Of a stretch of DNA of 39,036 nt, positions 115 to 26,822 are shown piece after piece. Made by a program: the position numbers and the translations under genes. The stretch is from a virus: positions 1 through 39,036 of IMG/VR virus record IMGVR_UViG_3300032242_002192. One strand, given 5' to 3'. Below the pieces are notes generated by a model. That model was not told the origin of the DNA. It saw nothing but the letters and a program-made list of their open reading frames with translations, and did not search any database. Numbering within the stretch: the first letter of the stretch is position 1; every line of letters begins with the position of its first letter.

Positions 115-121
115 CTATTTC
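1..121. repeat. 121-bp exact direct repeat, copy 1
   Basis: Positions 1-121 are identical to 378-498; the two copies diverge at 122/499. Each copy covers the start codon, tag and first ~38 codons of an LRV-type gene on the minus strand. The match may continue left of the window. It reads as a recent tandem duplication of an LRV gene, or an assembly end that stopped in a repeat. Confidence 0.95.
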
Positions 122-491
122 ATTTATTTCTGAGATTTAGGTTATCAATTGCTGGCATGCTAACGATCGTTTCCTCGTCATTAGTGAGTCGAATAAGGAC
201 TCGAGTTGAGGTGTTTGGGTTCCAGGCAACGTTCGATCTAACTCCCCAATAATCGTCATTAGCAAGCATGTCAAGCGTCTCAACTGGAGTGTTTAGATTC
301 TTCGCAACTGCTCGTTTAATGTACGGGTCATCTACTTTGGCCAACTCGGCTAGGATCTCAGGAGGAATATCAGTATCAGAGTTATTGCGAAGTTCTTCCT
401 CGTACTCCTCGATCGACTTGACTAGGCCCATTTTGGCCAACCTATTATGGGCCTCACGGTCCCAATGTTCAAATATTTTAATGTATTTCAT
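120..491 (-). CDS. LRV/HEAT-like repeat protein with N-terminal tag
   Basis: A 123-residue protein. It has a tag (MKYIKIFEHW), a conserved linker with RLAKMGL, then a short helical repeat region. Repeat signatures are VAKNLNTPVETLDMLAND and VAWNPNTSTRVLIRLTND, about 26 residues apart. The pattern VRxxVAxNPNTSxETLxxLAxD resembles leucine-rich-variant (LRV) repeats, which form a right-handed helical solenoid. The C-terminus ends with the family's NLN-basic motif. It overlaps the next upstream gene by 4 nt, so the array is probably translated in a coupled way. The tag resembles T4 capsid-targeting peptides, so virion packaging is possible. No catalytic motif is visible. Confidence 0.8.
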   Translation of the reverse strand: MKYIKIFEHWDREAHNRLAKMGLVKSIEEYEEELRNNSDTDIPPEILAELAKVDDPYIKRAVAKNLNTPVETLDMLANDDYWGVRSNVAWNPNTSTRVLIRLTNDEETIVSMPAIDNLNLRNK

Positions 492-498
492 CTATTTC
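378..498. repeat. 121-bp exact direct repeat, copy 2
   Basis: Second copy of the repeat at 1-121. It spans the start of the LRV gene at 120-491 and the few bases between it and the neighbouring gene. The distance between copies, 377 nt, equals about one LRV gene, as expected for whole-gene tandem duplication. Confidence 0.95.
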
Positions 499-1018
499 TA
501 TTATTTAGGTTAGCAGCTGCTTCCCATCTAACGTGCATGCTTTTGTCTCCAGCAAGCATTTTAAGAGTCTCAGTTGAGGTGTTCGGGTTCCGGGCAATTG
601 TATCCCTAACCTGCCAGTCCTTATCCGTTGAAAGTCGGTCAAGCGTTTCAATTGAGGTGTTCGGATTCTCCGCCACAGTTATTCTAACTAACGTATCTAT
701 GTCACCAGCTAGTCTATCAAGAGTCTCAATTGAGGTGTTCGGATTTTCGGCAACCATCCATCTAACTGACGCTGTCTTGTCTACCGAAAGTCGGTCGAGA
801 GTCTTAACTGGAGTGTTTATATTCTTTGCAACTGACAATCTAATGTACGGTTGCTTGTCCTTGGCTAACTCGTCTAGGACCTCAGGAGGAATATTAGCTC
901 CGACTGGGTTATCTCGTAGTTCGTCCAAGTACTCTTCAGCTGACTTAGCTAGGCCCATTTTGACAAGTCGATTATAGGCCTCCTGATCCCAGTTTTCAAA
1001 AAGTTTAAGGTGCTTCAT
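488..1018 (-). CDS. LRV/HEAT-like repeat protein with N-terminal tag
   Basis: A 176-residue protein and the clearest member of the family. The tag MKHLKLFENWDQEAYNRL is followed by about four 26-residue repeats of the form VRxxVAENPNTSIETLDRLAGD. Repeats two and three are nearly identical to each other at the protein level (VAENPNTSIETLDRL twice). The regularity points to recent internal repeat duplication. It overlaps the neighbouring LRV genes by 4 nt on one side and 14 nt on the other. The repeats suggest a protein-binding solenoid. The target is unknown and there are no enzymatic residues. Confidence 0.82.
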   Translation of the reverse strand: MKHLKLFENWDQEAYNRLVKMGLAKSAEEYLDELRDNPVGANIPPEVLDELAKDKQPYIRLSVAKNINTPVKTLDRLSVDKTASVRWMVAENPNTSIETLDRLAGDIDTLVRITVAENPNTSIETLDRLSTDKDWQVRDTIARNPNTSTETLKMLAGDKSMHVRWEAAANLNNRNR

Positions 1019-1394
1019 TTGATTTAGTTCTACTATTTAGGTTATCAGTTGCTGCCCTTCTAATGTCCGGTGACTTGTCGCCAATCAACCGGTCAAGAGT
1101 CTCAACTGAAGTTTTTGGATTTTCGGCAACCGACCATCTAACGTACCTGTTACTGTCCCTAGCAAGACGTCCCAGAACCTTAGTTGAGGTGTTTTGATTC
1201 TCGGCAGCTGCCTGTCTAACTGCTGGCTGCTTGTCCTTAGCAAACCCATTTAGAATATCAGGTGGAATATTAGCCCCGACTCGATCAGCCATGAGTTCAG
1301 CTAAATACTCTTTAGTCGACCTGATTAAGCCCATTTTAATAAGCCGAGTATGGGCCTCCTGGTCCAATTCTTCAAATAGTTTAATGTATTTCAT
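1005..1394 (-). CDS. LRV/HEAT-like repeat protein with N-terminal tag, first gene of array
   Basis: A 129-residue protein beginning MKYIKLFEELDQEAHTRLIKMGL, then about three LRV-like repeats (VAENPKTSVETLDRL). It is the most upstream gene of the leftward LRV array. A perfect TATAAATA octamer lies 16 nt before the start codon, so the array is probably transcribed late. There is no Shine-Dalgarno sequence. Its divergent neighbour is the polymerase gene, and the ~100 nt between them holds no other gene. Confidence 0.82.
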   Translation of the reverse strand: MKYIKLFEELDQEAHTRLIKMGLIRSTKEYLAELMADRVGANIPPDILNGFAKDKQPAVRQAAAENQNTSTKVLGRLARDSNRYVRWSVAENPKTSVETLDRLIGDKSPDIRRAATDNLNSRTKSNEAP

Positions 1395-1409: not shown

Positions 1410-1417
1410 TATTTATA
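1410..1417 (-). promoter_or_regulatory. T4-type late promoter TATAAATA
   Basis: A perfect match to the T4 late-promoter octamer on the minus strand, 16 nt upstream of the LRV start at 1394. In T4 this element is read by the gp55 sigma factor and needs no -35 box. Predicted transcription would begin about 10 nt before the start codon. Confidence 0.65.
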
Positions 1418-1495
1418 CATGGGTAATGATCTCCTTCTCCGAGATTTTTCACAATTTAATTAAAACAAAGAACAGATCATTAGTACAAGAATCAC

Positions 1496-3655
1496 ATGAC
1501 GAATAATACATTAGAACAACAGATCAAGTCGTTAGACCTCAAGCAAAATGCAATAAAAATCTTAATCAACTCTTTTTACGGAGCATTTGGGAATGCCTAT
1601 TTTTATTTTCACAATAACGAGATAGCCCAGTCAATTACCCTACAGGGCCAGGACCTAATTAAATTCTCAATTCGAGCGGTAAATCATTACTTTTTAAATA
1701 AATGGCACCTTGATACCGAACTACATGAAAAGCTAGGCATCTCTGGGCATTCAATTTCCAAGGTTGAAAAGGAGGCCGCTGTCTACACCGACACCGACTC
1801 GGTTGCTGGCGATACTATTATCAACAGCCAAAAATACGGAAACGTAACGATTTCAGATTTGTATGATCTGTGTAAAATCAATGGGTCAGCTGGAAATACT
1901 GTAGCTGGCCATGAATCGGTTAATGCAAATGACCGATTTTTAAATTGGACAGAGACTAAGGGTTTACATTATTCTGAAGGAAAAAGGATAATTAGGCATA
2001 AAGTTACAAAGGAGCGTTGGAAATTAACAACTGAGTCAGGTAAAGAGGTGATAGTTACAGGAGACCATTCGTTAATTGTATTTAGAGATCAAATTCAATT
2101 GAAAATAAAAGCTCGAGATATTAATCCTGAGACTGATCTAGTTCTGATAGTTTGGCAAAACGACGACTTATTAAACAGACAAAACCAATTAATTAAAATA
2201 ACTATAATGAAATTATCACATCAATTTGAAAAAATATCAAAGGTCGAGAAGCTTTCCGATTTTGAAGATGAGTTTGTATATGATATAGAAATATCAGATG
2301 ACTCACATTCATTTATTGCTAATGAAATACTTGTACATAATTCGGTGTATGTCTGTTTTGATTACGCAATTCAATCCGTCGAAGGTTTAAACATGACAGA
2401 TACTGAAGCTCTTCAATTTTGCTTGGCAATAAATCGGCACAGGCTTAACGGTTACTTCGTGAGCGCTTTTGAGAAGTATGCAAGCGCTTTTAACACCGAC
2501 AATCGACAGACCTTTGAACTTGAAAACCTGTCCAGGTCAGGGTTCTGGCTTGCCAAAAAGAACTACGTTCTTAAGGTTTCCTACAAGGACAATAAGCACG
2601 AAAAATTACTTGACAAGGAATCCTTAATCATTAAGGGCCTTGAGGCGATTCAAGCTTCATACCCAATTTGGGCCAGGCAACATTTACAGACCCTATACTC
2701 TTACCTTCTTGACCTTGGTTATAACATGGATATTGAAAGGGATTTGATTCCAAAGTTAGCCGAGCTACGAAAGGAATGCGATAAGCTTTCAATTGACGAG
2801 GTTGCCTTCAACTTCTCAGTTAGGGTTTATGAGCAATACGTCAAGAGTCTAAATCCGCTTGTTCTTGAAACCGGTATGCCGATCTACGGCCGAGCCGCAG
2901 CCTATCACAACCATGTGATTAAAAAGACAAACAATCAAAAGTACGGACTAATTCGTGGAGGTTCAAAGATCAGATTCTATTACACCGCACCAAACGAGTA
3001 TAATTTCGACGTGTTCGCCTACTCGCCGAGCGCCTTTCCGCAGGAATTCGCTCTACCCATCGATCGGGAACAGCAATTCTTTAGGCTAATCGTCGAACCC
3101 ATCAATAAGCTGCTTGTCTCAATAGGTTTTCCGGAACTGACCCCAAGCCTTACTCGTCGAGTTGAGTTAATCAAGTCAAGAACTCGATCTAAACAATTCA
3201 CACAGGAGGAAACCTTTCCACTATATGCGGTCGATTCACAAACTCTCAGGTACTTTGAGATTCCAGCAAGCTGTCAAGAGTACGTCGGTAATCCTGATGC
3301 CAAGGTGCCGGCTGAAATCTTTCCGATCTATCTGTCGTCAATCTCCAGATTTGGACTGACTACCGTGATCGTGCCAAAGCACGAGCTTAAAAAATATCGT
3401 GATAGAGTTGCAAAGAAATTGGGAATTAATGTCGATGATCCATTTGCAATTCCAATCGAGACAATGCAATCGTACTTAAGAGAAAACGGCTGGTCTGAGA
3501 TCATTGGAAATTCGGACGGCGGAGTGTGGTTGCAAACTGAGAAATTAGAAAAGGCCATGAAGCAAGGCAAAGACTACTACAAAATGGGGTATAGCTTGGA
3601 GAAAGCTTACAAAAGTGCAACGAAACCTAAACCTGTAAAATTCTCTGCTGAATAA
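1496..3655 (+). CDS. Family B DNA polymerase, C-terminal half only, with an intein (gp43-like)
   Basis: A 719-residue ORF that is 538 residues after removal of its intein. Only the C-terminal part of a T4 gp43-type replicative polymerase is present. It opens almost directly at motif B (AIKILINSFYGAFGN, residues 19-33) and has motif C as YTDTDS (residues 97-102), followed by palm and thumb regions. The exonuclease domain and motif A (DxxSLYPS) are absent. An in-frame TAG five codons upstream confirms that the ORF cannot extend. By analogy with RB69, the break would lie between the two finger helices, so the missing half is presumably encoded elsewhere. The intein interrupts motif C, so splicing should be needed for activity. 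Naturally split gp43 genes are known in some T4-like phages. Confidence 0.9.
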   Translation: MTNNTLEQQIKSLDLKQNAIKILINSFYGAFGNAYFYFHNNEIAQSITLQGQDLIKFSIRAVNHYFLNKWHLDTELHEKLGISGHSISKVEKEAAVYTDTDSVAGDTIINSQKYGNVTISDLYDLCKINGSAGNTVAGHESVNANDRFLNWTETKGLHYSEGKRIIRHKVTKERWKLTTESGKEVIVTGDHSLIVFRDQIQLKIKARDINPETDLVLIVWQNDDLLNRQNQLIKITIMKLSHQFEKISKVEKLSDFEDEFVYDIEISDDSHSFIANEILVHNSVYVCFDYAIQSVEGLNMTDTEALQFCLAINRHRLNGYFVSAFEKYASAFNTDNRQTFELENLSRSGFWLAKKNYVLKVSYKDNKHEKLLDKESLIIKGLEAIQASYPIWARQHLQTLYSYLLDLGYNMDIERDLIPKLAELRKECDKLSIDEVAFNFSVRVYEQYVKSLNPLVLETGMPIYGRAAAYHNHVIKKTNNQKYGLIRGGSKIRFYYTAPNEYNFDVFAYSPSAFPQEFALPIDREQQFFRLIVEPINKLLVSIGFPELTPSLTRRVELIKSRTRSKQFTQEETFPLYAVDSQTLRYFEIPASCQEYVGNPDAKVPAEIFPIYLSSISRFGLTTVIVPKHELKKYRDRVAKKLGINVDDPFAIPIETMQSYLRENGWSEIIGNSDGGVWLQTEKLEKAMKQGKDYYKMGYSLEKAYKSATKPKPVKFSAE
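1799..2341 (+). other. Mini-intein inside polymerase motif C
   Basis: Residues 102-282 of the polymerase ORF (181 aa) form an intein without a homing endonuclease. Block A begins at Ser1 (SVAGDTII). Block B has the TxxH motif in VTGDHSLIV. Block F/G is VYDIEISDDSHSFI then NEILVHN, and the +1 extein residue is Ser. Splicing restores YTDTD-SVYVCFD, the metal-binding motif. Motif C is a classic intein site in family B polymerases. The insert is visibly more A+T-rich than the flanking exteins. Ser1 rather than Cys1 is uncommon but functional in known inteins. Confidence 0.92.
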
Positions 3656-3865
3656 ATGGTCGTTCAACTCAATCCAACCATACCATTAACTACTCCGTTA
3701 GGAGACGGATTTGCCGTAGCCTTAATAGATTACGGAGAGGACCACGATTTAAAATGGGTCGTTATTCAGAATGGGTCTGGCGAGATCTGGACTTGGAACA
3801 ACTCTAAGGTTCGTGGAATTAAAAATATAACAGCTGACCGAAAGAACATAAGCGAAATTAAATAA
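3656..3865 (+). CDS. Small conserved phage-type protein
   Basis: A 69-residue protein. It starts immediately after the polymerase stop codon and its stop overlaps the primase start by one base, so the three genes look like one translational unit. It contains TPLGDGFAVALIDYGEDHDLKWVV and ends with GEIWTWNNSKVRGIKNIT. This resembles a small, mostly beta protein seen in many tailed phages next to replication genes, whose role is not known to me. I assign no function. Confidence 0.7.
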   Translation: MVVQLNPTIPLTTPLGDGFAVALIDYGEDHDLKWVVIQNGSGEIWTWNNSKVRGIKNITADRKNISEIK

Positions 3866-4989
3866 TGAAGATTGAGGAAATAACCGCATTCATTGAAACC
3901 CTACTGCGTAAAAGATTCCACGATGTCCCGGAAAAACAAAAGATTGAGGTACATACCGATCGCAAGCTAAATTTCGCCTGCCCAGTTTGTGGCGATTCTG
4001 AGAAAAAGGTGAGTAAAAAGAGAGGTAATCTCTACTTGGACACCGGTGCCTATAAATGCTTTAATGACGGTTGCATGGCCTACATGCCAATGGGAGAGTT
4101 CGTTGCAAGAATGAGCAAGCAGCACGGCATCATGTTACCAAGCTTCTTTCTGGACGAGGAATTCGTTCCTAATAAACAGGTCAAACGAACCGAAAATCAG
4201 CTAGTTCGCTTCATCACATCGGACACGTCAGCCCTGATTAAGATAACTGATGTGATTAATCGTTTTTCACTAAAACGGCTTGATGATGTCTCTGAGGATT
4301 CAGAAGCATTCAAGTACATTAAGGGTCGTGACTTGGACCAAATAGAGGATTACGGAGACTGGTTGTACACCGATTCTAACGATAACAAGATCTACATCTT
4401 TAACTTCGACATCAGGTCAGGTAGGTTACTAGGGTTTGCAATTAGAAGCCTGGATCCAGAATCTGATCGTAAGTACATCATTAAATCGTACACCGATCTT
4501 TCACAGATCTTTTCACAGGGCGGATTGGCAAAGGACCTAATTGAGGACGCTAACTTTCTCAACAATTACTTTAACATTCTAAACGTCGATTTTACCCAAC
4601 CCATCATCATGACCGAGGGTCAGTTCGATTCCCTATTAATCCGTAATTGCATTGCAACCTCCGGGGCATCAAAGGCCCGTAGCATACTCTCCTCACTTGG
4701 CGCAAAGGGCGCCACCAAGGTGTTGTTCGATAGGGACAAGGCAGGCAAGACTGAGATGATGAATTTCATAAAACAGGGATACTCGGTCTTTTTATGGAAC
4801 AAGGCAATGGGCGATCTTAAACGCATGTTTAGCAGTCAGGAAGATCTGATTGCAATGTTACGGATTAAGGACGTTAATGACATATTTTCTTACATTAGGG
4901 CCAGGGACCCTGAGTACACACTTGATGATTTCAACGATTGGATCATGGATTATTTTAGCGAAACCGTGTTTGACATGGCGTACCTATAA
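3865..4989 (+). CDS. DNA primase (T4 gp61-like)
   Basis: A 374-residue primase that would make RNA primers for lagging-strand synthesis at the phage replisome. A zinc-binding site is visible as C39/C42 (CPVCGDS) and C65/C70 (CFNDGC). The TOPRIM catalytic core follows, with E251 (TEGQFDSL) and the metal-binding pair D289/D291 (LFDRDKAGK). Length is close to T4 gp61 (342 aa). It lies downstream of the polymerase half, as expected for a replication operon. The start ATG overlaps the stop of the preceding gene. Confidence 0.88.
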   Translation: MKIEEITAFIETLLRKRFHDVPEKQKIEVHTDRKLNFACPVCGDSEKKVSKKRGNLYLDTGAYKCFNDGCMAYMPMGEFVARMSKQHGIMLPSFFLDEEFVPNKQVKRTENQLVRFITSDTSALIKITDVINRFSLKRLDDVSEDSEAFKYIKGRDLDQIEDYGDWLYTDSNDNKIYIFNFDIRSGRLLGFAIRSLDPESDRKYIIKSYTDLSQIFSQGGLAKDLIEDANFLNNYFNILNVDFTQPIIMTEGQFDSLLIRNCIATSGASKARSILSSLGAKGATKVLFDRDKAGKTEMMNFIKQGYSVFLWNKAMGDLKRMFSSQEDLIAMLRIKDVNDIFSYIRARDPEYTLDDFNDWIMDYFSETVFDMAYL

Positions 4990-4997: not shown

Positions 4998-5504
4998 ATG
5001 AAACCGAAGGAAACTAAACGAATACAGGACTTCTTAAAACCTAGAGCAGGTAAGGTTCAGCAGGGTTACTTTAGGCCGGCCCGTCCGGAAAAGTACGTTG
5101 GGGACGTAAGCACGATCGTGTTTAGAAGCTCCTGGGAATTTAAGTTTCTTAAGTGGTGCGATTCTAGTCCAACCGTAATCAAGTACGCAAGCGAACCGGT
5201 TGGAATTCCATACATGAGCCCTCTTGATAAAAGGGGTCATACCTATTACGTTGACTTTTACGTTGTGACCAAGGATAATGAAGGTAATGAACAGGGCTGG
5301 CTAATTGAGGTCAAGCCGAATAAGTATACCAAACCTCCGGTTGCTCCGACCAGAATGACCGACAAACAAACCGCAAACTACGTTCATTCAGCAAAGCAGT
5401 ACATCGTCAATCGAGCAAAATTTGAAGCGGCAAAGGAGTTCGCAGCGGTTAGGGGGTTGAAATTTGGCATAATCACGGAAAACTTTCTGTTCAAGTCAAT
5501 ATAA
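4998..5504 (+). CDS. Head completion protein (T4 gp4/gp50-like, nuclease fold)
   Basis: A 168-residue protein resembling T4 gp4 (also called gp50), which is needed to finish DNA-filled heads before tail joining. Key stretches are GYFRPARPEKYVGD, then STIVFRSSWEFKFLKWCD, then HTYYVDFYVV and WLIEVKPNK. The E...D...ExK arrangement (E127 near SSWE, YVDF, IEVKP) matches a TnsA/PD-(D/E)xK-like endonuclease core. The start is set by the late promoter 5 nt upstream. It begins the late operon gp4-unknown-portal. Identity is judged from motif order and context, not alignment. Confidence 0.85.
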   Translation: MKPKETKRIQDFLKPRAGKVQQGYFRPARPEKYVGDVSTIVFRSSWEFKFLKWCDSSPTVIKYASEPVGIPYMSPLDKRGHTYYVDFYVVTKDNEGNEQGWLIEVKPNKYTKPPVAPTRMTDKQTANYVHSAKQYIVNRAKFEAAKEFAAVRGLKFGIITENFLFKSI

Positions 5505-6179: not shown

Positions 6180-7862
6180 ATGGCCGGCTTTTTAGATAGT
6201 AACCCAATGCGAGGCCTTAGGTCAGGTTTAACCTCACTAAGTCGCTTCGGTATGAAATACGATGACCTTTTAGTTAAGAACTCTCAAGCAATAGGATTCA
6301 TCGAAGGTCAAATGACCAGCTACAACAATTCGATCGGCGATGATCTGATGAAGGCTACGTTAGCTCTTTCGGACACAACGTCTTCCCTAAAGAACAAGTC
6401 GATTGCCTTCTTTCAATTGGATTACGTTGTAAAAAGAGAAAGACTACGTGATCTTGCCTCGAATGGTGAGATTGAATTCATCATTGAAACCATCACCGAT
6501 GATGCAATAGTATACGATGAAGATAATCGATTTTGTTACCCAAATGACCTAGTTGGACAATTGGCATATAGGGGTAAAAACAAGGACGAACGAGTTAACT
6601 ATCAGGAAAAGATCATCAATAAGTACCTTGACAATTTCGAAAAGATCTACAATGCATGGAGCTTTGATAAGGGAATTTCAGCATGGCAGTACTTCTACCA
6701 ATGGTTGATCGAAGGTCACCTTTCCTTTGAAATCATCTACGATAACTTAACCAATCCAAAGGAGATCATAGGCTTTAAGGAACTTGATCCTTCAACCCTA
6801 TACCCTGAGGTTAAAAAGGACGCTGGCGGAAAGATTTACCTACAGTGGGTTCAAAAGGACCCGTTAAATAAGATGAATCGAACATTAACCGATTCGCAAA
6901 TCATCTACATTTCTTACTCAAATGAGTTTAGGACCAAAAGAGTAAGTTTCGTCGAAAGACTATTACGTTCGTTTAACCTGCTCAGGTTAATAGAACACTC
7001 CAAGATAATATGGCACACCATGAATGCTCCGATTCGATTAAAGACGACCGTACCGGTTGGAACGAAATCGATGCAGAAGGCCAAGGAGGACGTTCGAGAA
7101 TTTACCAACACCTTAAAGGAGGATATTAGTTTTGACGGATCATCCGGTGAATTAATGGTTAACGGTAGTCCGAACATTCTATTTTACAAAAACTACGTTT
7201 TACCAAAGAACGATAGGGGCGAATCAATCGAGATTGAAGCACTAGAGTATCCCGGCCCTAACCTATCAGGTTCCGAGCTATTAAAGTACTTTCAAGATAA
7301 GTTAAAGCTTGATTCTAAATTACCTTACTCACGCTGGTCCGAAGGTCAGGGCGCTTACACAATGAACGCTGAGGGAATTTCTCGAGAGGAAATTCGATAC
7401 AATAAGTTCATTAAACGATTAAGATCCGCGTACAAGGAGCTTATTACTAAACCTCTATACCTACAAATGTGCTTGGACGTTAAGGAACTAAAAACCGATC
7501 ATAAATTTCCAAATGCGGTCGGCCTAACCTGGCACGATGACAACGTGTTTGAGGAAATCAAGAACCAAGAATTGCTTAATAAGCGTCTTGCAACCTTAAA
7601 TTCTCTGAAAGCTTTGGTGGATGATGACAATAAATCTTACTTCCCAACCGAATACTTGGTTAAGGAATACTTAAAATTAAGCGATGAGGACTTACAAAAG
7701 ATCCAAAGCTATAAAGCCCTAGCTAAAAACGAACCAGTTAAGGACTCTGGTTCTGGAGGAGGCCAGCCTTCTCCTGGTGGAGCTCCTGCAAATAGGCCTG
7801 CTCAACCCGAGGCGCCAAGCGGAGAAACTTCATCTGAGGTTGGTCAAAAAGGCCAACTCTAG
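6180..7862 (+). CDS. Portal vertex protein (T4 gp20-like)
   Basis: A 560-residue portal protein. Twelve copies would form the DNA-entry vertex of the prohead and nucleate its assembly. It resembles T4 gp20 (524 aa) in its central and C-terminal parts. These include the NAPIRLKTTVPVG segment, the stem-region pattern GELMVNGSP...NYVLPKNDRG, then IEALEYPGPNLSG and the YFQDKLKLDSKLPYSRW helix with ISREEIRYNKFIKRLR. The C-terminus is a Gly/Pro/Ser-rich disordered tail from about residue 515. It is the last plus-strand gene and converges on the gp25-like gene with only 25 nt between stops. Confidence 0.93.
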   Translation: MAGFLDSNPMRGLRSGLTSLSRFGMKYDDLLVKNSQAIGFIEGQMTSYNNSIGDDLMKATLALSDTTSSLKNKSIAFFQLDYVVKRERLRDLASNGEIEFIIETITDDAIVYDEDNRFCYPNDLVGQLAYRGKNKDERVNYQEKIINKYLDNFEKIYNAWSFDKGISAWQYFYQWLIEGHLSFEIIYDNLTNPKEIIGFKELDPSTLYPEVKKDAGGKIYLQWVQKDPLNKMNRTLTDSQIIYISYSNEFRTKRVSFVERLLRSFNLLRLIEHSKIIWHTMNAPIRLKTTVPVGTKSMQKAKEDVREFTNTLKEDISFDGSSGELMVNGSPNILFYKNYVLPKNDRGESIEIEALEYPGPNLSGSELLKYFQDKLKLDSKLPYSRWSEGQGAYTMNAEGISREEIRYNKFIKRLRSAYKELITKPLYLQMCLDVKELKTDHKFPNAVGLTWHDDNVFEEIKNQELLNKRLATLNSLKALVDDDNKSYFPTEYLVKEYLKLSDEDLQKIQSYKALAKNEPVKDSGSGGGQPSPGGAPANRPAQPEAPSGETSSEVGQKGQL

Positions 7863-10180: not shown

Positions 10181-12313
10181 TTATTTTATTGTGAGCTTAT
10201 CGTCCTTTGCTTTGCAAGTTATTACAAGGTGATCACCTTCATTGATTTTTCCGTCAATGTACGCTTCGGCAATTAGGTCCTCAACGTAGGTCTGAATGGT
10301 TCTTTTTAAAGGTCTTGCTCCGTATTTTGGATCGTAACCCTTTAGGATTAAAAAGTCCTTTGCCGTTTTGGTCAATTCAACGGTGTACCCATTTTCCTTG
10401 ACTCTCTCGTAAAGATCGTTAAGTTCAACCTCAACTATTTGAGCAAGGTTGTCCTTACTTAAGGACTCAAATATGATGATGTCGTCCAACCTATTTATGA
10501 ATTCCGGTGCGAACTGTTTACTAACTGCCTTTCTTAAAATGCCAGCAGCTGCATCCTTTTTCTTTTCGAAATCCGAACCGGTTGAAAAACCAATACCCTC
10601 TCCGAAGTCCTGTAGTTCCCTAACTCCCAAGTTAGAGGTCATGATGATAACCGTGTTCTTAAAATCGACCTTTCTGCCCATACCGTCGGTCATGTGACCC
10701 TCGTCCAACACCTGTAATAGCGTGTGGAAAATATCCGGGTGAGCTTTTTCGATTTCATCAAGTAGAATTACGCAATACGGTCTGTGCTTAACCTTTTCAG
10801 TAAGCTGACCGCCTTCATTGTAGCCAACGTAACCGGGAGGAGCTCCAGCTAATTTACTAGCTGTGAACTTTTCACCGTATTCTGACATGTCAATTCGAAT
10901 TAGGGCATCGTCCGTGTCGAACATGAAATTTGCTAACTGTTTAGCTAGTTCCGTCTTACCTACACCGGTTGGCCCAAGAAACATGAAAGTTCCAATTGGT
11001 TTCTTTTTGGACTTAAGTCCGGCTCTTGATCTCTGTATTGCTTTCGTTAATTTAAGAACGGCTTGGTCCTGGCCAACGACTCTTTCCTTAAGCCATTTGC
11101 CCATGTTGGCTAACTTTTCAAGTTCTGAGCCCTTCAGCTTGGAAACTGGAATTCCAGTGATGCTTGCTACGACAATCGCGATATCATCCTCAGTTACTGG
11201 CATCTTATTAAGTTTGAGAGTTTTCTCCCATTCTATCTTCGCTTCAGCAATCTCGTCCATCACATGGAGAGCATCGTCCCTTAATTTAGCTGCAGCTTCG
11301 TACTGTTGAGAATCTACTGCTTCCTGTTTTTTGGCTGAGACCTCGATGAACTTGTCTTCGAGTATCTTAATTTCTTCAGGTACGACCACTCCGTTTATGT
11401 GAACCGCTGAGCCTGCCTCATCCATTAAGTCTATTGCCTTATCTGGTAGGAATCGGTTGGTGATGTATCGATCCGCGTAACTAACGCAAGCGTCCAGAGC
11501 TGAGGCATCGTACTTCACCGAATGGTGATCCTCGTACATTTGCTTAATATTTTCGATGATTTGACGAGACTGCGATGGAGTCGACGGTTCGACCATCACC
11601 TGTTGGAATCTACGACTTAGAGCACCGTCCTTTTCAATTGATTCTCGATACTCGTCCAGAGTCGTTGCTCCTATGCACTGAATCATTCCACGAGATAGCG
11701 CCGGTTTTAGAATGTTGGCTGCGTCCAAGGACCCGCTCGCCGAGCCAGCCCCAATTAAGGTGTGGATCTCGTCAATGAACAAGATTATTTCGGGGTTTTG
11801 CTGAACCTCCTCAATTATCATTTCCATTCTTTCCTCGAATTGACCTCTGTACTTTGTGCCGGCAACAAGATTAGCCAGTTCAAGTGAGAGTATCTTTTTA
11901 TCGAAAAGTACCCTTGGACACGTCTTTTTGATGATCATTTCAGCAAGTCCTTCGACTATTGCTGTATTATGTGAAAGTATATCTCCTGTGTAATATCTAT
12001 GGTCAGATCCATCTGGTAATTCTAGGTCATACATGGTTTCATATATTCCAGTTTTATGAATTAAGCATATTTCTGATGGCCCTAATTTAGTTTGAACTAA
12101 ATCTCCGATGATTAAATCTTGCACAAAAACTTCGTTGTAATTTGAATCAAACACGATATGCAAATCTGCGCATGATAATTGACAACCGTTTTTTGTGTGA
12201 ATTTCAATAATTTCATATTCAACCGTAGTGTGAATTTTTGAAACTTCGACCCAACCTGAGTCTGTGAGTACCTCAATATCGGATAACTCTTTAGAACTTA
12301 TAATTTTCTTCAT
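10181..12313 (-). CDS. Split-intein C-part fused to ClpC-type AAA+ ATPase body
   Basis: A 710-residue ORF. Residues 1-116 are the C-terminal part of an intein, ending [10 protein letters not shown]. The remaining 594 residues are a ClpC-type unfoldase continuing at [10 protein letters not shown]. They include the D1 Walker B ([14 protein letters not shown]), arginine-finger region, a UVR-like linker ([13 protein letters not shown]), the D2 Walker A ([12 protein letters not shown]) and Walker B ([10 protein letters not shown]), and the C-terminal D2-small domain. The protein would be active only after trans-splicing to the product of 12291-12590, which supplies the first half of the D1 P-loop. 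Two ATPase rings unfold substrates, usually for ClpP, and no ClpP is visible here. The start ATG lies inside the end of the upstream ORF in another frame. Confidence 0.88.
11966..12313 (-). other. C-terminal part of split intein (116 aa)
   Basis: Block B is seen as [10 protein letters not shown] with its His, followed by [14 protein letters not shown]. Block F is [17 protein letters not shown] and block G is ILSHN, with Thr as the +1 residue. Penultimate His and terminal Asn are both present, so C-terminal cleavage chemistry is intact. No homing endonuclease is inserted. Confidence 0.88.
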
Positions 12314-12590
12314 GTAGTAATTGATCTATTGTAATCGTTAATTCAGTTCCATCTGATTTACGCCTAATTGTAATTGGAGTTTTTCCTATTACGCATTTGC
12401 CGACTCCTGGTTCTCCTATTAATATTGGATTATTTTTCTTTCTTCTAGCCAGTATCTGACTACATCTCTTTATCTCCTTTTCTCTACCGACCACCGGGTC
12501 AAGCTTACCCTCAATTGCTAGTTGAGTTAGGTCCTTTCCGAACGAGTCCAGCATTGGAGTCTTTGAGGTCTTACCTTGTTGTTTTGCCAT
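12291..12590 (-). CDS. ClpC-type ATPase N-terminal segment fused to split-intein N-part
   Basis: A 99-residue ORF. Residues 1-65 are the start of a ClpC D1 domain ([23 protein letters not shown], then [12 protein letters not shown]). Residues 66-99 are an intein N-fragment starting with Cys1 ([13 protein letters not shown]) and ending at a TAA stop. The usual Clp N-domain that binds adaptors and substrates is missing; the protein begins right at the D1 domain. The intein sits between Lys and Thr of the Walker A motif (GEPGVGK-T), so without splicing D1 cannot bind ATP. It overlaps the following ORF by 23 nt. A natural split or a one-base assembly error are both possible. Confidence 0.85.
12294..12395 (-). 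other. N-terminal part of split intein (34 aa)
   Basis: Begins at Cys1 directly after the P-loop lysine; block A is [10 protein letters not shown]. At 34 residues it is much shorter than the ~100-residue N-part of DnaE-type split inteins. It resembles the atypically split class, in which the break is soon after block A. Confidence 0.85.
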
Positions 12591-17194: not shown

Positions 17195-17196
17195 TG

Positions 17197-17270
17197 TGAT
17201 TCCTAAAGGGTTCGAACCTTTAACCTGCTGATTCGAAGTCAGCTGCTCTATCCAATTGAGCTAAGGAACC
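17197..17270 (-). tRNA. tRNA-Arg(UCG)
   Basis: A cloverleaf can be folded on the minus strand: acceptor GGTTCCT/AGGAATC, anticodon stem GCTGA/TCAGC around CTTCGAA (anticodon TCG), T-loop TTCGAAC. CCA is not encoded. Confidence 0.9.
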
Positions 17271-17271
17271 A

Positions 17272-17356
17272 TGGTGACCTTATCCGGACTCGAACCGGAA
17301 CGTCTTTCAACACAGCGACCTCAACGCTGCGTGTCTACCAATTCCACCATAAGGCC
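17272..17356 (-). tRNA. tRNA-Leu(GAG)
   Basis: Class II tRNA with a long variable arm. Acceptor GGCCTTA/TAAGGTC, anticodon stem CAGCG/CGCTG around TTGAGGT (anticodon GAG). CCA is encoded. Confidence 0.9.
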
Positions 17357-17360
17357 ATTG

Positions 17361-17717
17361 TTAATCCTCCTTCCTGGAGGAATTTAGGAGCAACCTGATT
17401 TGAGCTCCCAACTCTACATCATTTGGATACTGCTTTGCCAAAGCCCTAACGTCAATTTCCTTGGCGAATAATTTATCCATGTATTCTATGGTTCCAGCCG
17501 ATAGCCCCTCAATTTCGGGTGAGTCCGCATCAAATGCGATTGCCCAACCCAGGTCCATTACTGCCATTAGAATGATCAGGGTCGGATGCACAGGTTGATT
17601 GGCCTCATCGAACTTTAACCTGTCATACTGGATCACCGAACCTTCCAATAACTTTAGCAATGCCTGTTCAGCTGTCATTTTGCTGGTAATGAAATCGTAG
17701 AATTCTTTTACTTTCAT
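17361..17717 (-). CDS. Unknown phage protein within the tRNA/LRV region
   Basis: A 118-residue protein beginning MKVKEFYDFITSKMTAEQALLKLL. A hydrophobic middle segment (LIILMAVMDLGWAIAF) could be a membrane helix or a buried helix; its flanks are charged. There is no signal peptide. The start MKVKEFYDFI is loosely like the N-terminal tag of neighbouring proteins, but without a following hydrophobic-x-Glu. Function unknown. Confidence 0.6.
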   Translation of the reverse strand: MKVKEFYDFITSKMTAEQALLKLLEGSVIQYDRLKFDEANQPVHPTLIILMAVMDLGWAIAFDADSPEIEGLSAGTIEYMDKLFAKEIDVRALAKQYPNDVELGAQIRLLLNSSRKED

Positions 17718-17723
17718 ATTATT

Positions 17724-18335
17724 TTATCTATTTTCGTACATGCTTGTTAATGAAGTTCTCGCCGCTGCCTGCGCAACGTCACCATTTACATCAAGTTTTA
17801 GCTTAGCTAGGACCTCATCTTGCACGTTTGGATTCATAGCGACGGCCTTTCTAATGCTAGCTGCTTTAGCTTGAGATAATTTAGCTAAAGTATCAGCAGA
17901 GCAGTTAGGGTTACCGGCAACCGCCACGTAAACCCATTCTCGTTGACCTTCGATTATCCGAGCTAGAGTAGTTGCTGGCGTGCTTGGATTTGAGGCGACT
18001 GCCATTCTAGCTCCTATTACGTCAGATTCGGCCAACCTATCCAAAATATCAATTGGACAGTTTGGATTTCCGGCAATCGCGTAAGTAACTGTGTCGTGTG
18101 AATTGCTACCTTCTAACCTTCTCAAAGTTTCAACTGGCGTGTTTTTGTGCGCGGCGACTCGTTGTCTAACTATTGTAAACATGCTATTTGCTAATTCATT
18201 CAGCACGTACTCTGGGACGTTCGGTGAGTAATATTCTCGTAGGTCGTCCTCCCATTCAAGGATTGACTTGATTAGCCCCATTTTTATTAGCCTATCATGA
18301 GTCTCGGAATCAATTTCTGTATGAGAATCTTTCAC
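17724..18335 (-). CDS. LRV/HEAT-like repeat protein lacking the usual tag
   Basis: About 203 residues if translation starts at GTG 18335. It has the family linker THDRLIKMGLIKSILEWEDDL and then five or more LRV-like repeats (VAAHKNTPVETLRRL, IAGNPNCPIDILDRL, VASNPSTPATTLARI). The usual MKHLKLFENW tag is absent. The open frame continues to an ATG at 18383, but that codon lies inside tRNA-Arg(ACG), so a start there is unlikely. The gene probably lost its 5' end by recombination with the tRNA region, or uses the GTG. Expression is uncertain. Confidence 0.65.
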   Translation of the reverse strand: MKDSHTEIDSETHDRLIKMGLIKSILEWEDDLREYYSPNVPEYVLNELANSMFTIVRQRVAAHKNTPVETLRRLEGSNSHDTVTYAIAGNPNCPIDILDRLAESDVIGARMAVASNPSTPATTLARIIEGQREWVYVAVAGNPNCSADTLAKLSQAKAASIRKAVAMNPNVQDEVLAKLKLDVNGDVAQAAARTSLTSMYENR

Positions 18336-18350
18336 TTGATTTGATCTTAG

Positions 18351-18422
18351 CGCTCCCACTACGACTCGAACGTAGATTACCAATTTCGTAGACTGACGTT
18401 CTATCCATTGAACTATGGGAGC
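18351..18422 (-). tRNA. tRNA-Arg(ACG)
   Basis: Acceptor GCTCCCA/TGGGAGC, D-stem GTTC/GAAC, anticodon loop CTACGAA (anticodon ACG), T-loop TTCGAGT. No encoded CCA. Its 3' part overlaps the longest reading of the LRV frame. Confidence 0.88.
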
Positions 18423-18464
18423 GAATTTTATCTTAAACCTATTGTACCAACTGGAGGTTAAATG

Positions 18465-18537
18465 TGACCGTGCTAGGACTCGAACCTAAACTAGGAATTT
18501 AGAAGATTCCTGTGCTGTCCAATTACACCACACGATC
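18465..18537 (-). tRNA. tRNA-Arg(UCU)
   Basis: Acceptor GATCGTG/CACGGTC, anticodon stem GGAAT/ATTCC around CTTCTAA (anticodon TCT), T-loop TTCGAGT. No encoded CCA. Confidence 0.9.
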
Positions 18538-18549
18538 AATTGTTCGCGG

Positions 18550-18634
18550 CGGAGAGCAGAGTACTCGAAACTCAACCAACTTAACGATCCGCTCGCTTAG
18601 CAGGCGGCGATGAATCCCATTCATTTTACTCTCC
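18550..18634 (-). tRNA. tRNA-Ser(GCU), structurally unusual
   Basis: Acceptor GGAGAGT/GCTCTCC with discriminator G, and a characteristic serine anticodon loop CTGCTAA (anticodon GCT). The D-arm is odd (ATGAAT-GGG-ATTCAT) and the anticodon stem has two mismatches. It may be a divergent functional tRNA or a decaying one. No exact CCA (CCG follows). Confidence 0.65.
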
Positions 18635-18642
18635 ATTTTAAG

Positions 18643-18728
18643 TATCTCGGGTGGGACTCGAACCCACACGACCATCACTGATCACCAGGGCTTAAACCTG
18701 GCGTGCCTACCAATTCCACCACCGAGAC
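18643..18728 (-). tRNA. tRNA-Leu(UAA)
   Basis: Class II. Acceptor GTCTCGG/CCGAGAT, anticodon stem CCAGG/CCTGG around TTTAAGC (anticodon TAA), long variable arm, T-loop TTCGAGT. No encoded CCA. Confidence 0.9.
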
Positions 18729-18731
18729 ATG

Positions 18732-18816
18732 TGGTACCCAAGACAGGACTCGAACCTGCATGACCGAAGTCACTCGCTCCTAAGGCGAGCGTGTCTACCA
18801 GTTCCACCACTTGGGC
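18732..18816 (-). tRNA. tRNA-Leu(UAG), copy 1
   Basis: Class II. Acceptor GCCCAAG/CTTGGGT, anticodon stem CTCGC/GCGAG around CTTAGGA (anticodon TAG). CCA is encoded. A second Leu(UAG) lies at 26742-26822. Confidence 0.9.
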
Positions 18817-18826
18817 ATTTTTATTG

Positions 18827-18899
18827 GGAGACAAACGAGAATCGAACTCGCATTAACAGATTCACAATCTGACGTGTTAACCCTTACACTATTGCCTCC
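18827..18899 (-). tRNA. tRNA-His(GUG)
   Basis: Acceptor GAGGCAA/TTGTCTC with an encoded extra G at -1 opposite discriminator C, the hallmark of tRNA-His. Anticodon loop TTGTGAA (anticodon GTG). No encoded CCA. Confidence 0.9.
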
Positions 18900-18915
18900 A
18901 TGTGCATTACTTAAC

Positions 18916-19000
18916 TGGCGGAGAGCTGAGGTATCGATCCCCATACGTGAGTACCACATGTTTTCAAGACAAGGTTGCAGGCCACTGCAATTAACTCTCC
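18916..19000 (-). tRNA. tRNA-Ser(UGA)
   Basis: Class II. Acceptor GGAGAGT/GCTCTCC, discriminator G, encoded CCA. Anticodon loop CTTGAAA (anticodon TGA). The D-arm TTGCA-GTGGCC-TGCAA has a short loop, as in the neighbouring Ser(GCU). Confidence 0.85.
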
Positions 19001-19007
19001 AATTCTG

Positions 19008-19078
19008 AGGCTGATGTAGGATTCGAACCTACGTAGGAGGTTTTGCAGACCTCCGCCTAGCCACTCGGCCAACCAGCC
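19008..19078 (-). tRNA. tRNA-Cys(GCA)
   Basis: Acceptor GGCTGGT/ATCAGCC, discriminator T, anticodon stem GAGGT/ACCTC around CTGCAAA (anticodon GCA), T-loop TTCGAAT. First tRNA of the cluster in transcription order. Confidence 0.9.
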
Positions 19079-19275: not shown

Positions 19276-19815
19276 TTATTGCAGGTCCATTATTGTGACG
19301 TACTCTTCTTCATTTTCGCCGATCACTCGACGTCCGAATCTAGTCCAATTGTCAATGTTATGAAGACCCTTAAGGTGTCTACCCCAAACGTAATCATACG
19401 GCATTGAAAGTGGAACGTCTCTCATTAATTTACCTATTCCAGCACCTCGATATTCCGGTAAAAGTGCAAGCCCAAGACCCTGTAATCCTCTTAGCCCATC
19501 GTATTTAGAATAATCTTCAAGAGCACAACTGCACTCGTCTAACATTGATGAAACTGGATCTTCATTGAATAGATAACAACTAATTACTTTGTTGCCGATC
19601 ATGCACTTTTTTGAAATGCTCCAATCGGTATTAGCTCCAAGGTATTCTCTAATTCCATCGGGCGTGTCAACGTCACTAAATACATCAACGCATATTTCAA
19701 TAATTTCAGGTATGTCTTCTTTCTCGATAGGCGAAATGATCGGTCTCTCTGAGTGAAAGTCCTCATTAATTGAACTATTGTTGACAAATTCTGTGAATCT
19801 AAGTAGTTTTATCAT
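19276..19815 (-). CDS. Tagged GNAT acetyltransferase, alternative internal start
   Basis: In-frame internal reading of the preceding ORF, starting at ATG 19815 (179 codons). The N-terminus MIKLLRFTEFVNNSSINED has the same form as other tags in this window (hydrophobic-Phe-x-x-Phe-Val-Asn, then I-N-E). A perfect TATAAATA lies 69 nt upstream inside the coding sequence. The product would be a stand-alone GNAT, transferring an acetyl group from acetyl-CoA to an unknown amine substrate. Whether this start is used is inferred. Confidence 0.5.
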   Translation of the reverse strand: MIKLLRFTEFVNNSSINEDFHSERPIISPIEKEDIPEIIEICVDVFSDVDTPDGIREYLGANTDWSISKKCMIGNKVISCYLFNEDPVSSMLDECSCALEDYSKYDGLRGLQGLGLALLPEYRGAGIGKLMRDVPLSMPYDYVWGRHLKGLHNIDNWTRFGRRVIGENEEEYVTIMDLQ

Positions 19816-20790
19816 TATATTTTCATTTACTTTTTCTAACGAAACGTAACCTTCTTTACCTTGGTCTTCGTTGAGTATGCGATTATTTATATTTGCTGCA
19901 GTTGCAAGTCTTTCACGAATTCCTCTAAGATCTCTAGCATCCTCGTCCTCGTCTTCGTCTTCCGGTGAATCCTCTCCGGCATCAACGATTCGGTCAATGA
20001 CTAGCGCAATCGCTTCAGTTGACTGATACCCGATGGTTATAGGACCGTCAGATATAAACGATTCAAGATAGGATACTAAGTGTTCACCGATTGCATCCGG
20101 TGAAACCAGCTCGCTTAGCTCGTGTTCGTCGATGTTAACGTCTAAGTACTCTGTTGTGTTTAAATTTATGTCACTATTTCTTACGGATACTTCATACGAG
20201 TCAGTCCCAGATTTTAGGTCAAGAGTAAGAGAAACTGTAAAGTGGTACTTGTCATAAGCTTTAATTCCAATCCCGACGAAAGAGTCTCCTCTTAACGTGT
20301 AATCGGTTTTTACCTTGAATACTAAATTAACCGGATCACATTTAACTAGATGTATCTCATCAAGAGACCTAGCAATTGCAGCCTTGATGCCAGCTTCGTA
20401 ATTTGGAACAATTCCCATCCTAGTCAATCGATTTATGTGATCGTCGTTCGTATTTTCAGTAATGATAATGGTGTCATCACTTGAGAGTCGATCTAACACA
20501 TCAGCTCGAATATTAGGATTTTGAGACACGGTACTTCTAATTGGAGGAGTTGATGTTGCTATTCTGTCTAATGCACCTGGGCTTGAGTTGGGATGTTTCG
20601 CAACAATCCATCTAACTAAAAAGTCTTCACTTTTTTCTAATTGATTCAGTACATGTGTTGGTACCTCAGTCTTTACGCCGGTCTCCGTTAGTTCCCTTTC
20701 CCAGTCTTTAAGCGACTTGGTTAGGCCCATTCTGACCAAGTTATCATGGACATCTTGATCCCAGTCTTCAAATATTTTCAGGTGTTTCAT
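19276..20790 (-). CDS. Tagged LRV protein fused to a tagged GNAT-type acetyltransferase
   Basis: A 504-residue ORF. Parts in order are: tag MKHLKIFEDWDQDVHDNL; two or three LRV-like repeats to residue ~110; a second linker-like copy (HINRLTRMGIVPNYEAGIK) and a beta-rich unknown domain to ~270; an acidic stretch (SPEDEDEDEDARD); then a second tag at residue 326 (MIKLLRFTEFVNN) followed by a GNAT domain. The GNAT acetyl-CoA loop is GLGLALLPEYRGAGIG. The second tag and a TATAAATA before it indicate that two genes were fused, or that the GNAT is also made alone. It overlaps the upstream LRV gene by 23 nt. Confidence 0.8.
   Translation of the reverse strand: MKHLKIFEDWDQDVHDNLVRMGLTKSLKDWERELTETGVKTEVPTHVLNQLEKSEDFLVRWIVAKHPNSSPGALDRIATSTPPIRSTVSQNPNIRADVLDRLSSDDTIIITENTNDDHINRLTRMGIVPNYEAGIKAAIARSLDEIHLVKCDPVNLVFKVKTDYTLRGDSFVGIGIKAYDKYHFTVSLTLDLKSGTDSYEVSVRNSDINLNTTEYLDVNIDEHELSELVSPDAIGEHLVSYLESFISDGPITIGYQSTEAIALVIDRIVDAGEDSPEDEDEDEDARDLRGIRERLATAANINNRILNEDQGKEGYVSLEKVNENIMIKLLRFTEFVNNSSINEDFHSERPIISPIEKEDIPEIIEICVDVFSDVDTPDGIREYLGANTDWSISKKCMIGNKVISCYLFNEDPVSSMLDECSCALEDYSKYDGLRGLQGLGLALLPEYRGAGIGKLMRDVPLSMPYDYVWGRHLKGLHNIDNWTRFGRRVIGENEEEYVTIMDLQ
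19884..19891 (-). promoter_or_regulatory. T4-type late promoter TATAAATA inside the LRV-GNAT frame
   Basis: A perfect octamer on the coding strand, 69 nt before the internal tagged GNAT start at 19815. Confidence 0.45.
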
Positions 20791-21301
20791 TCGGTTCTAC
20801 TGTTCTAGATATAAATCCTTTGTTAATGTTATTTATCATATCTTTAACCTCAGGACTTGTGTTCCGGTTTCTTTTAACCGCCATTCTAACGTAGATGCTT
20901 CTGTCGTTTGCTAACTTCGTCAAGACTTCGGTTGGTGTGTTTGGATTTAACGCGACCTGTTCTCTAACGTCCAAGATCCAATCCTTTGATAATATAATTA
21001 ATGATTCTATTGAGGTGTTGGGATTACTTGCAACTCGACTCCTAACTCCTCCATTATCAACTCCAAATCTAGCTAATTTGTCAAGCGTCTCAACTGACGT
21101 GTTTGGATGATTTGCTATAATTGAATTGTGTGCCACCGAATCTAGCTCGGTTAATTTATCGAGAACGTGACTCGGCACATCAGCAAAACAGTCCTCGATT
21201 AGATCTTGCGTCCAGTCGTCCAGTCGCCTGATTAATCCCATCTTGACCAATCGGTCATAGGCTTCATTTTCTGATAGTTCAAAATCGTTATTTGTGTTCA
21301 T
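20768..21301 (-). CDS. LRV/HEAT-like repeat protein with divergent N-terminus
   Basis: A 177-residue LRV protein. The N-terminus MNTNNDFELSENEAYDRLVKMGL keeps the family linker, but the usual tag is replaced by a polar sequence. About five repeats follow (IANHPNTSVETLDKL, VASNPNTSIESLIIL, VALNPNTPTEVLTKL, VKRNRNTSPEV). The gene overlaps its neighbours by 14 and 23 nt. Several repeats are close copies of those in the next upstream gene, suggesting gene conversion or duplication. Confidence 0.8.
   Translation of the reverse strand: MNTNNDFELSENEAYDRLVKMGLIRRLDDWTQDLIEDCFADVPSHVLDKLTELDSVAHNSIIANHPNTSVETLDKLARFGVDNGGVRSRVASNPNTSIESLIILSKDWILDVREQVALNPNTPTEVLTKLANDRSIYVRMAVKRNRNTSPEVKDMINNINKGFISRTVEPNETPENI
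20830..20837 (-). promoter_or_regulatory. Late-promoter-like GATAAATA
   Basis: One mismatch from TATAAATA, 40 nt upstream of the LRV-GNAT start (20790), inside the 3' end of the preceding LRV gene. Confidence 0.4.
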
Positions 21302-21902
21302 TGATGACTTTCATCCTACGTTGTATTGCTGCATACTTAACTTCATCTGCTGGATCTCCGCACAGCTTATTTATAATTCTAGCCGGCGTGCTAGGATTTT
21401 CTGCGACACTTCTTCTAAGATAAGTATCCCCCATTTTAGATAATGTACTTAAAGATTCTATTGAGGTGTTGGGATTACTTGCAACTCCTCGTCTAACATC
21501 AATGTCCTCGTCAATAGCAAGTCGGTCAAGGGTCTCAACTGGAGTGATCGGATTCTTGGCAACCGTCTCCCTAACCAGCCAGTTCTCATCGGTTGAAAGC
21601 CTATCTAGAGTTTCGACAGAGGAATTAAGATTACTAGCAACGCTAACTCTAATCCATTGATCGGGTTCGTCCGCTAATTTCGCTAACGTCTCAGCGCTAA
21701 CATTTGAATTCTTAGCAATTTGTGATTTAATTAAATTACCTGAGGTTTTGGCTAACTGATCAAGTATGTGGGTCGGTACGTCTGGATTGCTTTCTACGAA
21801 CAGATCATTTTCCCAGTCCCTAATGGATCTAGCTAGACCCATCTTAACCAATCGGTCATGAGCTTCTTGGTCCCAGTTTTCAAAGAGTTTAACGTGCTTC
21901 AT
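21288..21902 (-). CDS. LRV/HEAT-like repeat protein with N-terminal tag
   Basis: 204 residues from ATG 21902, chosen because it begins exactly with the tag MKHVKLFENWDQEAHDRL and lies just past the upstream stop at 21919. The longer frame to 21974 would add 24 residues overlapping the upstream gene. Five to six LRV-like repeats follow (VASNLNSSVETLDRL, VAKNPITPVETLDRL, VASNPNTSIESLSTL, VAENPSTPARIINKL). The tag is nearly identical to that of the LRV gene at 488-1018, about 21 kb away. Confidence 0.82.
   Translation of the reverse strand: MKHVKLFENWDQEAHDRLVKMGLARSIRDWENDLFVESNPDVPTHILDQLAKTSGNLIKSQIAKNSNVSAETLAKLADEPDQWIRVSVASNLNSSVETLDRLSTDENWLVRETVAKNPITPVETLDRLAIDEDIDVRRGVASNPNTSIESLSTLSKMGDTYLRRSVAENPSTPARIINKLCGDPADEVKYAAIQRRMKVINEHK
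21368..21375 (-). promoter_or_regulatory. T4-type late promoter TATAAATA
   Basis: A perfect minus-strand octamer 67 nt upstream of the LRV start at 21301, within the 3' end of the preceding LRV gene. Confidence 0.5.
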
Positions 21903-21918
21903 TAAAGGTCGGTAATGT

Positions 21919-22464
21919 TTAGCTTGGAAAATGAGCGTGTAAAACGTCAATTCTTTCTGAATAGCTAGGATCAACGGTCACCAACAGATCGGTCAATGAT
22001 GCGATCATTGTGACCAGTTCGGAATACTCATCGTATTCTCCGGTTGAATTATCGTTTTTGAACATCGACATCACCTCAATCGTGGTGTCCTGTAGGAAAT
22101 CGTACAGCTTTTCGGCGTCGATTTGTCCCTCAAGTTCTTCCGGTGTTTCAACGTACTCGCACTCGGTTCTTAGGTAATCGTAGTAATCTTGAGCGCTGCT
22201 TAATAATTTAGAGAGCTCGGATCGAGTGTTCCTAACTTTATGGGACCCAATCTCTGTAGAGCTAACCTTTGTCAACGAGGTCAAAGGTACCCTTGCCGTG
22301 TTTTGCTTTGAATTATGTAGTCTAACAGTAGCAATATCTCCAGTTATCTCAACTATCTCTCCAAGACCTCGGTACGAATTGACCGAGTCTCCGACCGATA
22401 GCTCATTAGCCGATCCACCGTCAAAATCAGGTTCAAATTCTTCAAATATCTTAATGTGTTTCAT
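21919..22464 (-). CDS. Tagged protein with small beta domain
   Basis: A 181-residue protein that begins with the tag MKHIKIFEEFEPDF. Residues ~25-70 look like an SH3/KOW-like small barrel (VGDSVNSYRGLGEIVEITGDIATVRL), then helical segments rich in Tyr, Asp and Glu. It carries the tag of the LRV family without any LRV repeat, which shows that the tag is modular. It overlaps the next upstream gene by 14 nt. No enzymatic motif. Confidence 0.7.
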   Translation of the reverse strand: MKHIKIFEEFEPDFDGGSANELSVGDSVNSYRGLGEIVEITGDIATVRLHNSKQNTARVPLTSLTKVSSTEIGSHKVRNTRSELSKLLSSAQDYYDYLRTECEYVETPEELEGQIDAEKLYDFLQDTTIEVMSMFKNDNSTGEYDEYSELVTMIASLTDLLVTVDPSYSERIDVLHAHFPS

Positions 22465-26725: not shown

Positions 26726-26741
26726 GACTTTAAATTTTTAG

Positions 26742-26822
26742 TACGGATGGAGAGACTCGAACTCTCACATCTTACGATACTAGCTCCTAAGGCTAGCGTG
26801 TCTACCATTTCACCACATCCGC
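26742..26822 (-). tRNA. tRNA-Leu(UAG), copy 2
   Basis: Class II. Acceptor GCGGATG/CATCCGT, anticodon stem CTAGC/GCTAG around CTTAGGA (anticodon TAG), T-loop TTCGAGT. It differs in sequence from the Leu(UAG) at 18732, so it is not a recent duplicate. No encoded CCA. Confidence 0.88.

What the first reader, a model, noticed from the sequence alone, without database searches (positions are those of the whole stretch)
1496..3655. DNA polymerase gene begins at motif B; the exonuclease and motif A are missing
The ORF starts about 18 codons before KILINSFYGAFGN, with an in-frame stop five codons upstream. By analogy with RB69, the cut would fall between the two long finger helices, a structurally tolerant point. 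The expected position of the missing half is instead filled by minus-strand LRV genes. This implies a two-subunit polymerase whose other half is outside the window. Split gp43 genes exist in some T4-like phages, but the break point here should be compared.
Basis: partly seen in the sequence, partly recalled or inferred. Interest (0 to 1): 0.72.

Follow-up and report, generated by a model that had tools for sequence, protein, structure and literature searches.

The report
Phage DNA polymerase in two genes
This virus builds its DNA-copying enzyme from two proteins whose genes, in its relatives, lie about 40 kilobases apart; only the back half is in this fragment, and a self-removing protein insert interrupts its active site.

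Summary
ORF 1496-3655 is the C-terminal half of a T4-type family B DNA polymerase. It starts 20 codons before motif B, with an in-frame TAG five codons upstream. The window is a 39-kb fragment, so its own N-half cannot be seen. In relatives, however, a separate ~456-473-aa protein carries all exonuclease residues, motif A and finger helix N. It ends in a stop codon before motif B in all 47 copies found. In ten contigs with both halves, N lies about 38-49 kb upstream on the same strand, among gp41/gp46/gp47/UvsX-like genes; C sits beside primase and portal. No second polymerase was found. The break maps to RB69 residues ~502-541, the often disordered finger tip between helices N and P. The catalytic triad is divided between subunits (D411 | D621, D623). 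Finger-tip splitting is known from Aeromonas phages, where 43A and 43B co-purify and are active. A tree puts this split in a separate huge-phage clade (Lak, PTm1, MA9V-2), all 15 rows split. Best reading: an obligate two-subunit polymerase assembling non-covalently after intein removal. New variant of a known kind; no biochemistry was done.

The parts
1496..3655 (+). PolB C-half gene (gp43B-type): helix P/motif B, palm with motif C, thumb, C-terminal extension; interrupted by an intein
1481..1483 (+). in-frame TAG five codons upstream of the start, closing the frame
1556..1594 (+). motif B KILINSFYGAFGN (RB69 K560, N564, Y567 conserved)
1784..1798 (+). motif C, first part: YTDTD (RB69 D621, D623)
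1799..2341 (+). contiguous 181-aa mini-intein S102-N282: Ser1, TGDH block B, terminal His-Asn, +1 Ser; no room for a homing endonuclease domain
2342..3652 (+). C-extein: S283VY..., KKxY (K354-Y357), thumb to about residue 545, then a ~175-aa extension not matched by polymerase profiles
120..491 (-). LRV-repeat gene, upstream neighbour, not part of the polymerase
488..1018 (-). LRV-repeat gene
1005..1394 (-). LRV-repeat gene, divergent from the polymerase gene
3865..4989 (+). DNA primase-like neighbour (phrog_47 E=3.8e-30)
4998..5504 (+). head-closure / TnsA-like nuclease neighbour (phrog_218, PF08722)
6180..7862 (+). T4-type portal gp20 neighbour (PF07230 E=1.2e-64)

Best explanation
The ORF encodes the C-terminal subunit of an obligate two-subunit family B replicative polymerase. 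The N-terminal subunit (N-domain, 3'-5' exonuclease, palm strand with motif A, finger helix N) is a separate gene, in relatives about 38-49 kb upstream in the replication cluster. Shown by sequence: the two ORFs are complementary, non-overlapping, single-copy, co-inherited and (in relatives) under purifying selection, and every RB69 catalytic residue checked is present in one half or the other. Inferred: after the intein splices out and restores YTDTDSVY, the two proteins dock non-covalently through the divided palm and the paired helices N and P, giving one active site with D411 from one chain and D621/D623 from the other. No split intein or Rfam intron was found at the finger junction, so the halves should stay separate polypeptides, as reported for gp43A/gp43B of Aeromonas phage 25.
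For: N-half ORFs in 13 of 20 relative records and 47 loci from a scan, all stopping before motif B. Two complementary PF00136 pieces in each of the larger contigs and no PF00476. RB69 alignment: D114, E116, D222, D327, D411, R482, K486 in N; K560, N564, Y567, D621, D623, K706 in C, intact in the window clade. Break at RB69 ~502/541 is the tip found disordered in crystals (PMC3792054); helices N/P residues from PMC3564110. dN/dS 0.02-0.09 in both halves among relatives where dS could be computed. N and C distance matrices correlate, r=0.97. Same arrangement in Lak, PTm1, MA9V-2 and LR7565xx huge phages. Phage 25 43A/43B co-purify with polymerase activity (PMC2988022).
Against: The window's own N-half is not seen (fragment). 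dS against the window itself was saturated, so purifying selection there is inferred from relatives. AlphaFold2 models of each half alone were poor (mean pLDDT 54 and 52), with shallow alignments, so there is no structural proof of docking. The N/C correlation could reflect shared genome history alone. Intein splicing is inferred from residues.
Confidence: 0.88

Rival explanations
1. The ORF is a decaying remnant and the phage uses another polymerase.
For: The window has only the C-half.
Against: All active-site residues kept, dN/dS 0.02-0.09 in relatives, same form in all sampled relatives, no other PolB or PolA found in large relatives.
Confidence: 0.03
2. Assembly or sequencing error cut a normal full-length gene at ~1490.
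For: The contig end lies in near-identical LRV repeats (1-129 versus 378-506, 98%), a typical assembly break.
Against: Dozens of contigs show the same start, and N-half ORFs always stop at the complementary point; N is 38-49 kb away, not adjacent.
Confidence: 0.02
3. The halves are joined covalently: by trans-splicing RNA, or by a diverged split intein at the finger tip.
For: Split inteins join PolB pieces at motif C in PTm1, Aes516 and Lak relatives.
Against: Neither half carries Hint sequence at the finger junction; both have their own start and stop codons; no Rfam intron near either gene in the stretches searched.
Confidence: 0.05
4. The N-half also acts on its own, for example as a free proofreading exonuclease, so the split is regulatory.
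For: The two genes lie in different gene neighbourhoods and the C-half has its own upstream region.
Against: N keeps motif A and R482/K486, useless without the C-half.
Confidence: 0.08

Closest known systems
gp43A/gp43B of Aeromonas phages 25 and 44RR, and Aes516 (Petrov, Ratnayaka and Karam 2010, as cited in PMC2988022)
   Same: PolB cut at the finger tip (Aes516, tested here); two separate genes; 43A/43B of phage 25 co-purify and are active; Aes516 also has an intein at motif C
   Different: Genes adjacent there; Aes516 is cut cleanly (RB69 512|514) whereas the window clade lacks ~38 tip residues; separate origin on the tree
Tenacibaculum phage PTm1, Chryseobacterium phage MA9V-2, Prevotella Lak phages, LR745206/LR7565xx huge phages
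   Same: Same finger-tip split, same clade with 100/100 support; in Lak-C1 and some LR records the halves are 100 kb or more apart
   Different: PTm1, Lak and LR756500 have split inteins at motif C; the window has a contiguous one; identity only ~25-36%
Aes516-type PolB intein (PDB 9hth) and Campylobacter phage CC_R7 PolB intein
   Same: Same insertion site, DTD|S, Ser1 and +1 Ser
   Different: The window intein is contiguous like CC_R7's but only 37% identical to it; nearest match is the LR756500 N-intein, 53% over 106 aa
PHROG families phrog_2062 (502 positions) and phrog_1918 (382 positions), 'DNA polymerase'
   Same: Profile families of N-half and C-half size that match these proteins
   Different: Not labelled there as two halves of one enzyme

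Membership tests
T4-type family B DNA polymerase (gp43) | Exo residues D114, E116, D222, D327 | tested here: met
   In the N-half of relatives; not seen for the window's own N-half
T4-type family B DNA polymerase (gp43) | Motif A D411 and helix N R482/K486 | tested here: met
   In the N-half of relatives
T4-type family B DNA polymerase (gp43) | Motif B K560/N564/Y567, motif C D621/D623, K706 of KKxY | tested here: met
   In the window C-half with intein removed
T4-type family B DNA polymerase (gp43) | C-terminal clamp-binding tail (SLFDMF type) | tested here: inconclusive
   The window C-half ends in a different ~175-aa extension; no such tail visible
Split gp43A/gp43B (Aeromonas phages) | Two ORFs with the break at the finger tip between helices N and P | tested here: met
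Split gp43A/gp43B (Aeromonas phages) | Halves associate and polymerise DNA | not testable with these tools
   Reported for phage 25 in PMC2988022
Split gp43A/gp43B (Aeromonas phages) | Common descent with the Aeromonas split | tested here: not met
   Tree: Aes516 groups with unsplit Metamorpho 100/100; split label needs two changes
PolB motif C intein | Ser1, block B TxxH, C-terminal HN, +1 Ser, insertion after DTD | tested here: met
Fractured gene rejoined by a split intein | Int-N and Int-C at the gene break | tested here: not met
   No Hint sequence at the finger break

The most novel reading that the evidence does not exclude
A single ancient split at the finger tip made the replicative PolB of a whole huge-phage clade (this group, Lak, PTm1, MA9V-2 and others) an obligate heterodimer, after which the two genes drifted into separate neighbourhoods, up to hundreds of kilobases apart and sometimes on opposite strands.
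Probability: 0.65. Interest if true: 0.62.

Novelty: new variant of a known kind. Interest (0 to 1): 0.52.

Why it matters
Replicative polymerases are normally one chain, and separating the gene should be risky for an essential enzyme. Here the active site itself is divided between two unlinked genes and is conserved in that state across a clade. The same break evolved on a separate branch in Aeromonas phages, marking the finger tip as a natural cut site and a guide for designing split polymerases. Genome annotation that looks for one long gene will miss or misname both halves.

Tried and rejected
Structure models of each half alone were poor, so no fold search was run on them; the folding tool takes one chain, so the halves were not modelled together. 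A scan of viral contigs for close copies of the intein found nothing (window-like records may be left out). No Rfam intron in the window or the two G001 stretches searched. Alternative code TAG=Q to open the frame upstream was considered: 7 of 46 listed window ORFs end in TAG and the upstream sequence is not polymerase, so rejected. No description of unlinked PolB halves was found in the papers searched: Iyer 2021 (PMC7824862), which describes a split Pol III, Devoto 2019, Al-Shayeb 2020 and a Lak paper; the library is open-access only.

Full report
What is there. ORF 1496-3655 (+) encodes 719 aa beginning MTNNTLEQQIKSLDLKQNAIKILINSFYGAFGN. The frame is closed by TAG at 1481. Pfam gives DNA_pol_B (profile 140-233) and Intein_splicing (residues 117-282). 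Aligned with 19 relatives that lack it, the intein is residues 102-282 (DNA 1799-2341), inserted exactly between D101 and S283 of motif C. It has Ser1, TGDH, terminal HN and +1 Ser, and is homologous to an Aes516-type PolB intein of known structure (9hth). Nearest sequences by BLAST are the split inteins of LR756500 (53% over 106 aa) and PTm1 (41% N, 56% C) at the same site.

The missing half. The window is a 39,036-bp virus fragment. A scan found 23 C-half relatives, and translation of other fetched loci added more, all starting at the same point. Searching 20 relative records with the PTm1 N-half found a match in 13; PF00136 gave two complementary pieces, profile about 16-155 and 128-451, in most records over 59 kb. 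A scan with one N-half returned 47 loci; all end in a stop after helix N (LYNGRVDTKxEMKKLEEQL or similar) and none reaches motif B. From the contig coordinates, N lies about 38-49 kb upstream of C on the same strand in contigs holding both. Records G001-G004 have nearly equal lengths (270-271 kb) but different start points, with the same ~43 kb spacing when read as circles (checked for G001-G003), which suggests complete circularly permuted genomes (inference). N sits with gp41, gp46, gp47 and UvsX-like genes (my reading of the proteins); C sits with primase and portal. PF00476 finds no family A polymerase in 10 large relatives.

Where the cut falls. In a MAFFT alignment with RB69 gp43, window-clade N-halves end at RB69 ~498-502 and C-halves start at ~539-541. 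Alignment near the ends is less certain for the distant phages. RB69 residues 497-545, 504-530 or 504-534 are disordered in crystals of a mutant enzyme (PMC3792054). R482/K486 lie on helix N and K560/N564 on helix P (PMC3564110). D411 is in N; D621 and D623 are in C.

Evolution. A tree of 20 polymerases gives 15 huge-phage rows, all split, on one side of a 100/100 branch; Aes516 pairs with the unsplit Klebsiella phage Metamorpho at 100/100. The split label needs two changes. Unsplit rows are only four and some branches are long, so a single origin within the huge-phage clade is likely but not proven; the root is unknown. In PTm1 and MA9V-2 the halves are 2-4 kb apart; in LR756500 about 10 kb; in Lak-C1 about 227 kb and on opposite strands; in LR756504 about 281 kb in record coordinates.

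How it works. dN/dS is 0.02-0.09 for both halves among relatives; comparisons with the window itself had saturated dS. N and C distances correlate at r=0.97 over ten genomes, which shows joint inheritance but not contact. The most likely mechanism is splicing of the intein, then non-covalent docking of the two chains. The precedent is phage 25, whose 43A and 43B co-purify with polymerase activity (PMC2988022). Direct tests remain to be done.

Novelty. Split gp43 is known. What is added here is a separate lineage, unlinked gene halves, lack of ~38 tip residues, and a contiguous motif C intein in the C-half gene, seen in the window and in none of the near relatives aligned. PHROGs already holds families of half size, and annotators of PTm1 and Aes516 named split polymerases. 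I found no paper describing unlinked PolB halves, within an open-access library.

Noticed in passing
10181-12590 (-): ClpB-like chaperone gene cut at Walker A by a split intein with a very short N part: 12291-12590 ends [20 protein letters not shown]...NYKF stop; 10181-12313 begins [12 protein letters not shown] and ends its intein at [11 protein letters not shown]. In five relatives the match starts right after the intein and lies in one open frame of 657-681 aa, so ClpB looks uninterrupted there. Resembles AceL-TerL type split inteins (own knowledge).
   Followed up: partly
120-1394, 19276-24326 (-): Many ORFs begin MKHxKxFExWD or similar (also FSQFVNEG, FKQYVVNEA), like T4 head-targeting N-termini (own knowledge); several carry LRV repeats and could be internal head proteins.
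   Followed up: no
1-1409: LRV genes look like tandem duplicates: 1-129 and 378-506 are 98% identical, so the contig ends inside a repeat.
   Followed up: partly
window, 7 sites such as 1410-1417 (-): TATAAATA, the T4 late promoter core (own knowledge), occurs 7 times against about 2 expected; one is 15 bp before the LRV gene that starts at 1394.
   Followed up: partly
residues ~545-719 of 1496-3655: Extra C-terminal extension in place of the usual clamp-binding tail; shorter in L024, L026 and L093 relatives.
   Followed up: no
17196-19078, 26741-26822 (-): Nine tRNA genes, mostly Arg and Leu.
   Followed up: no
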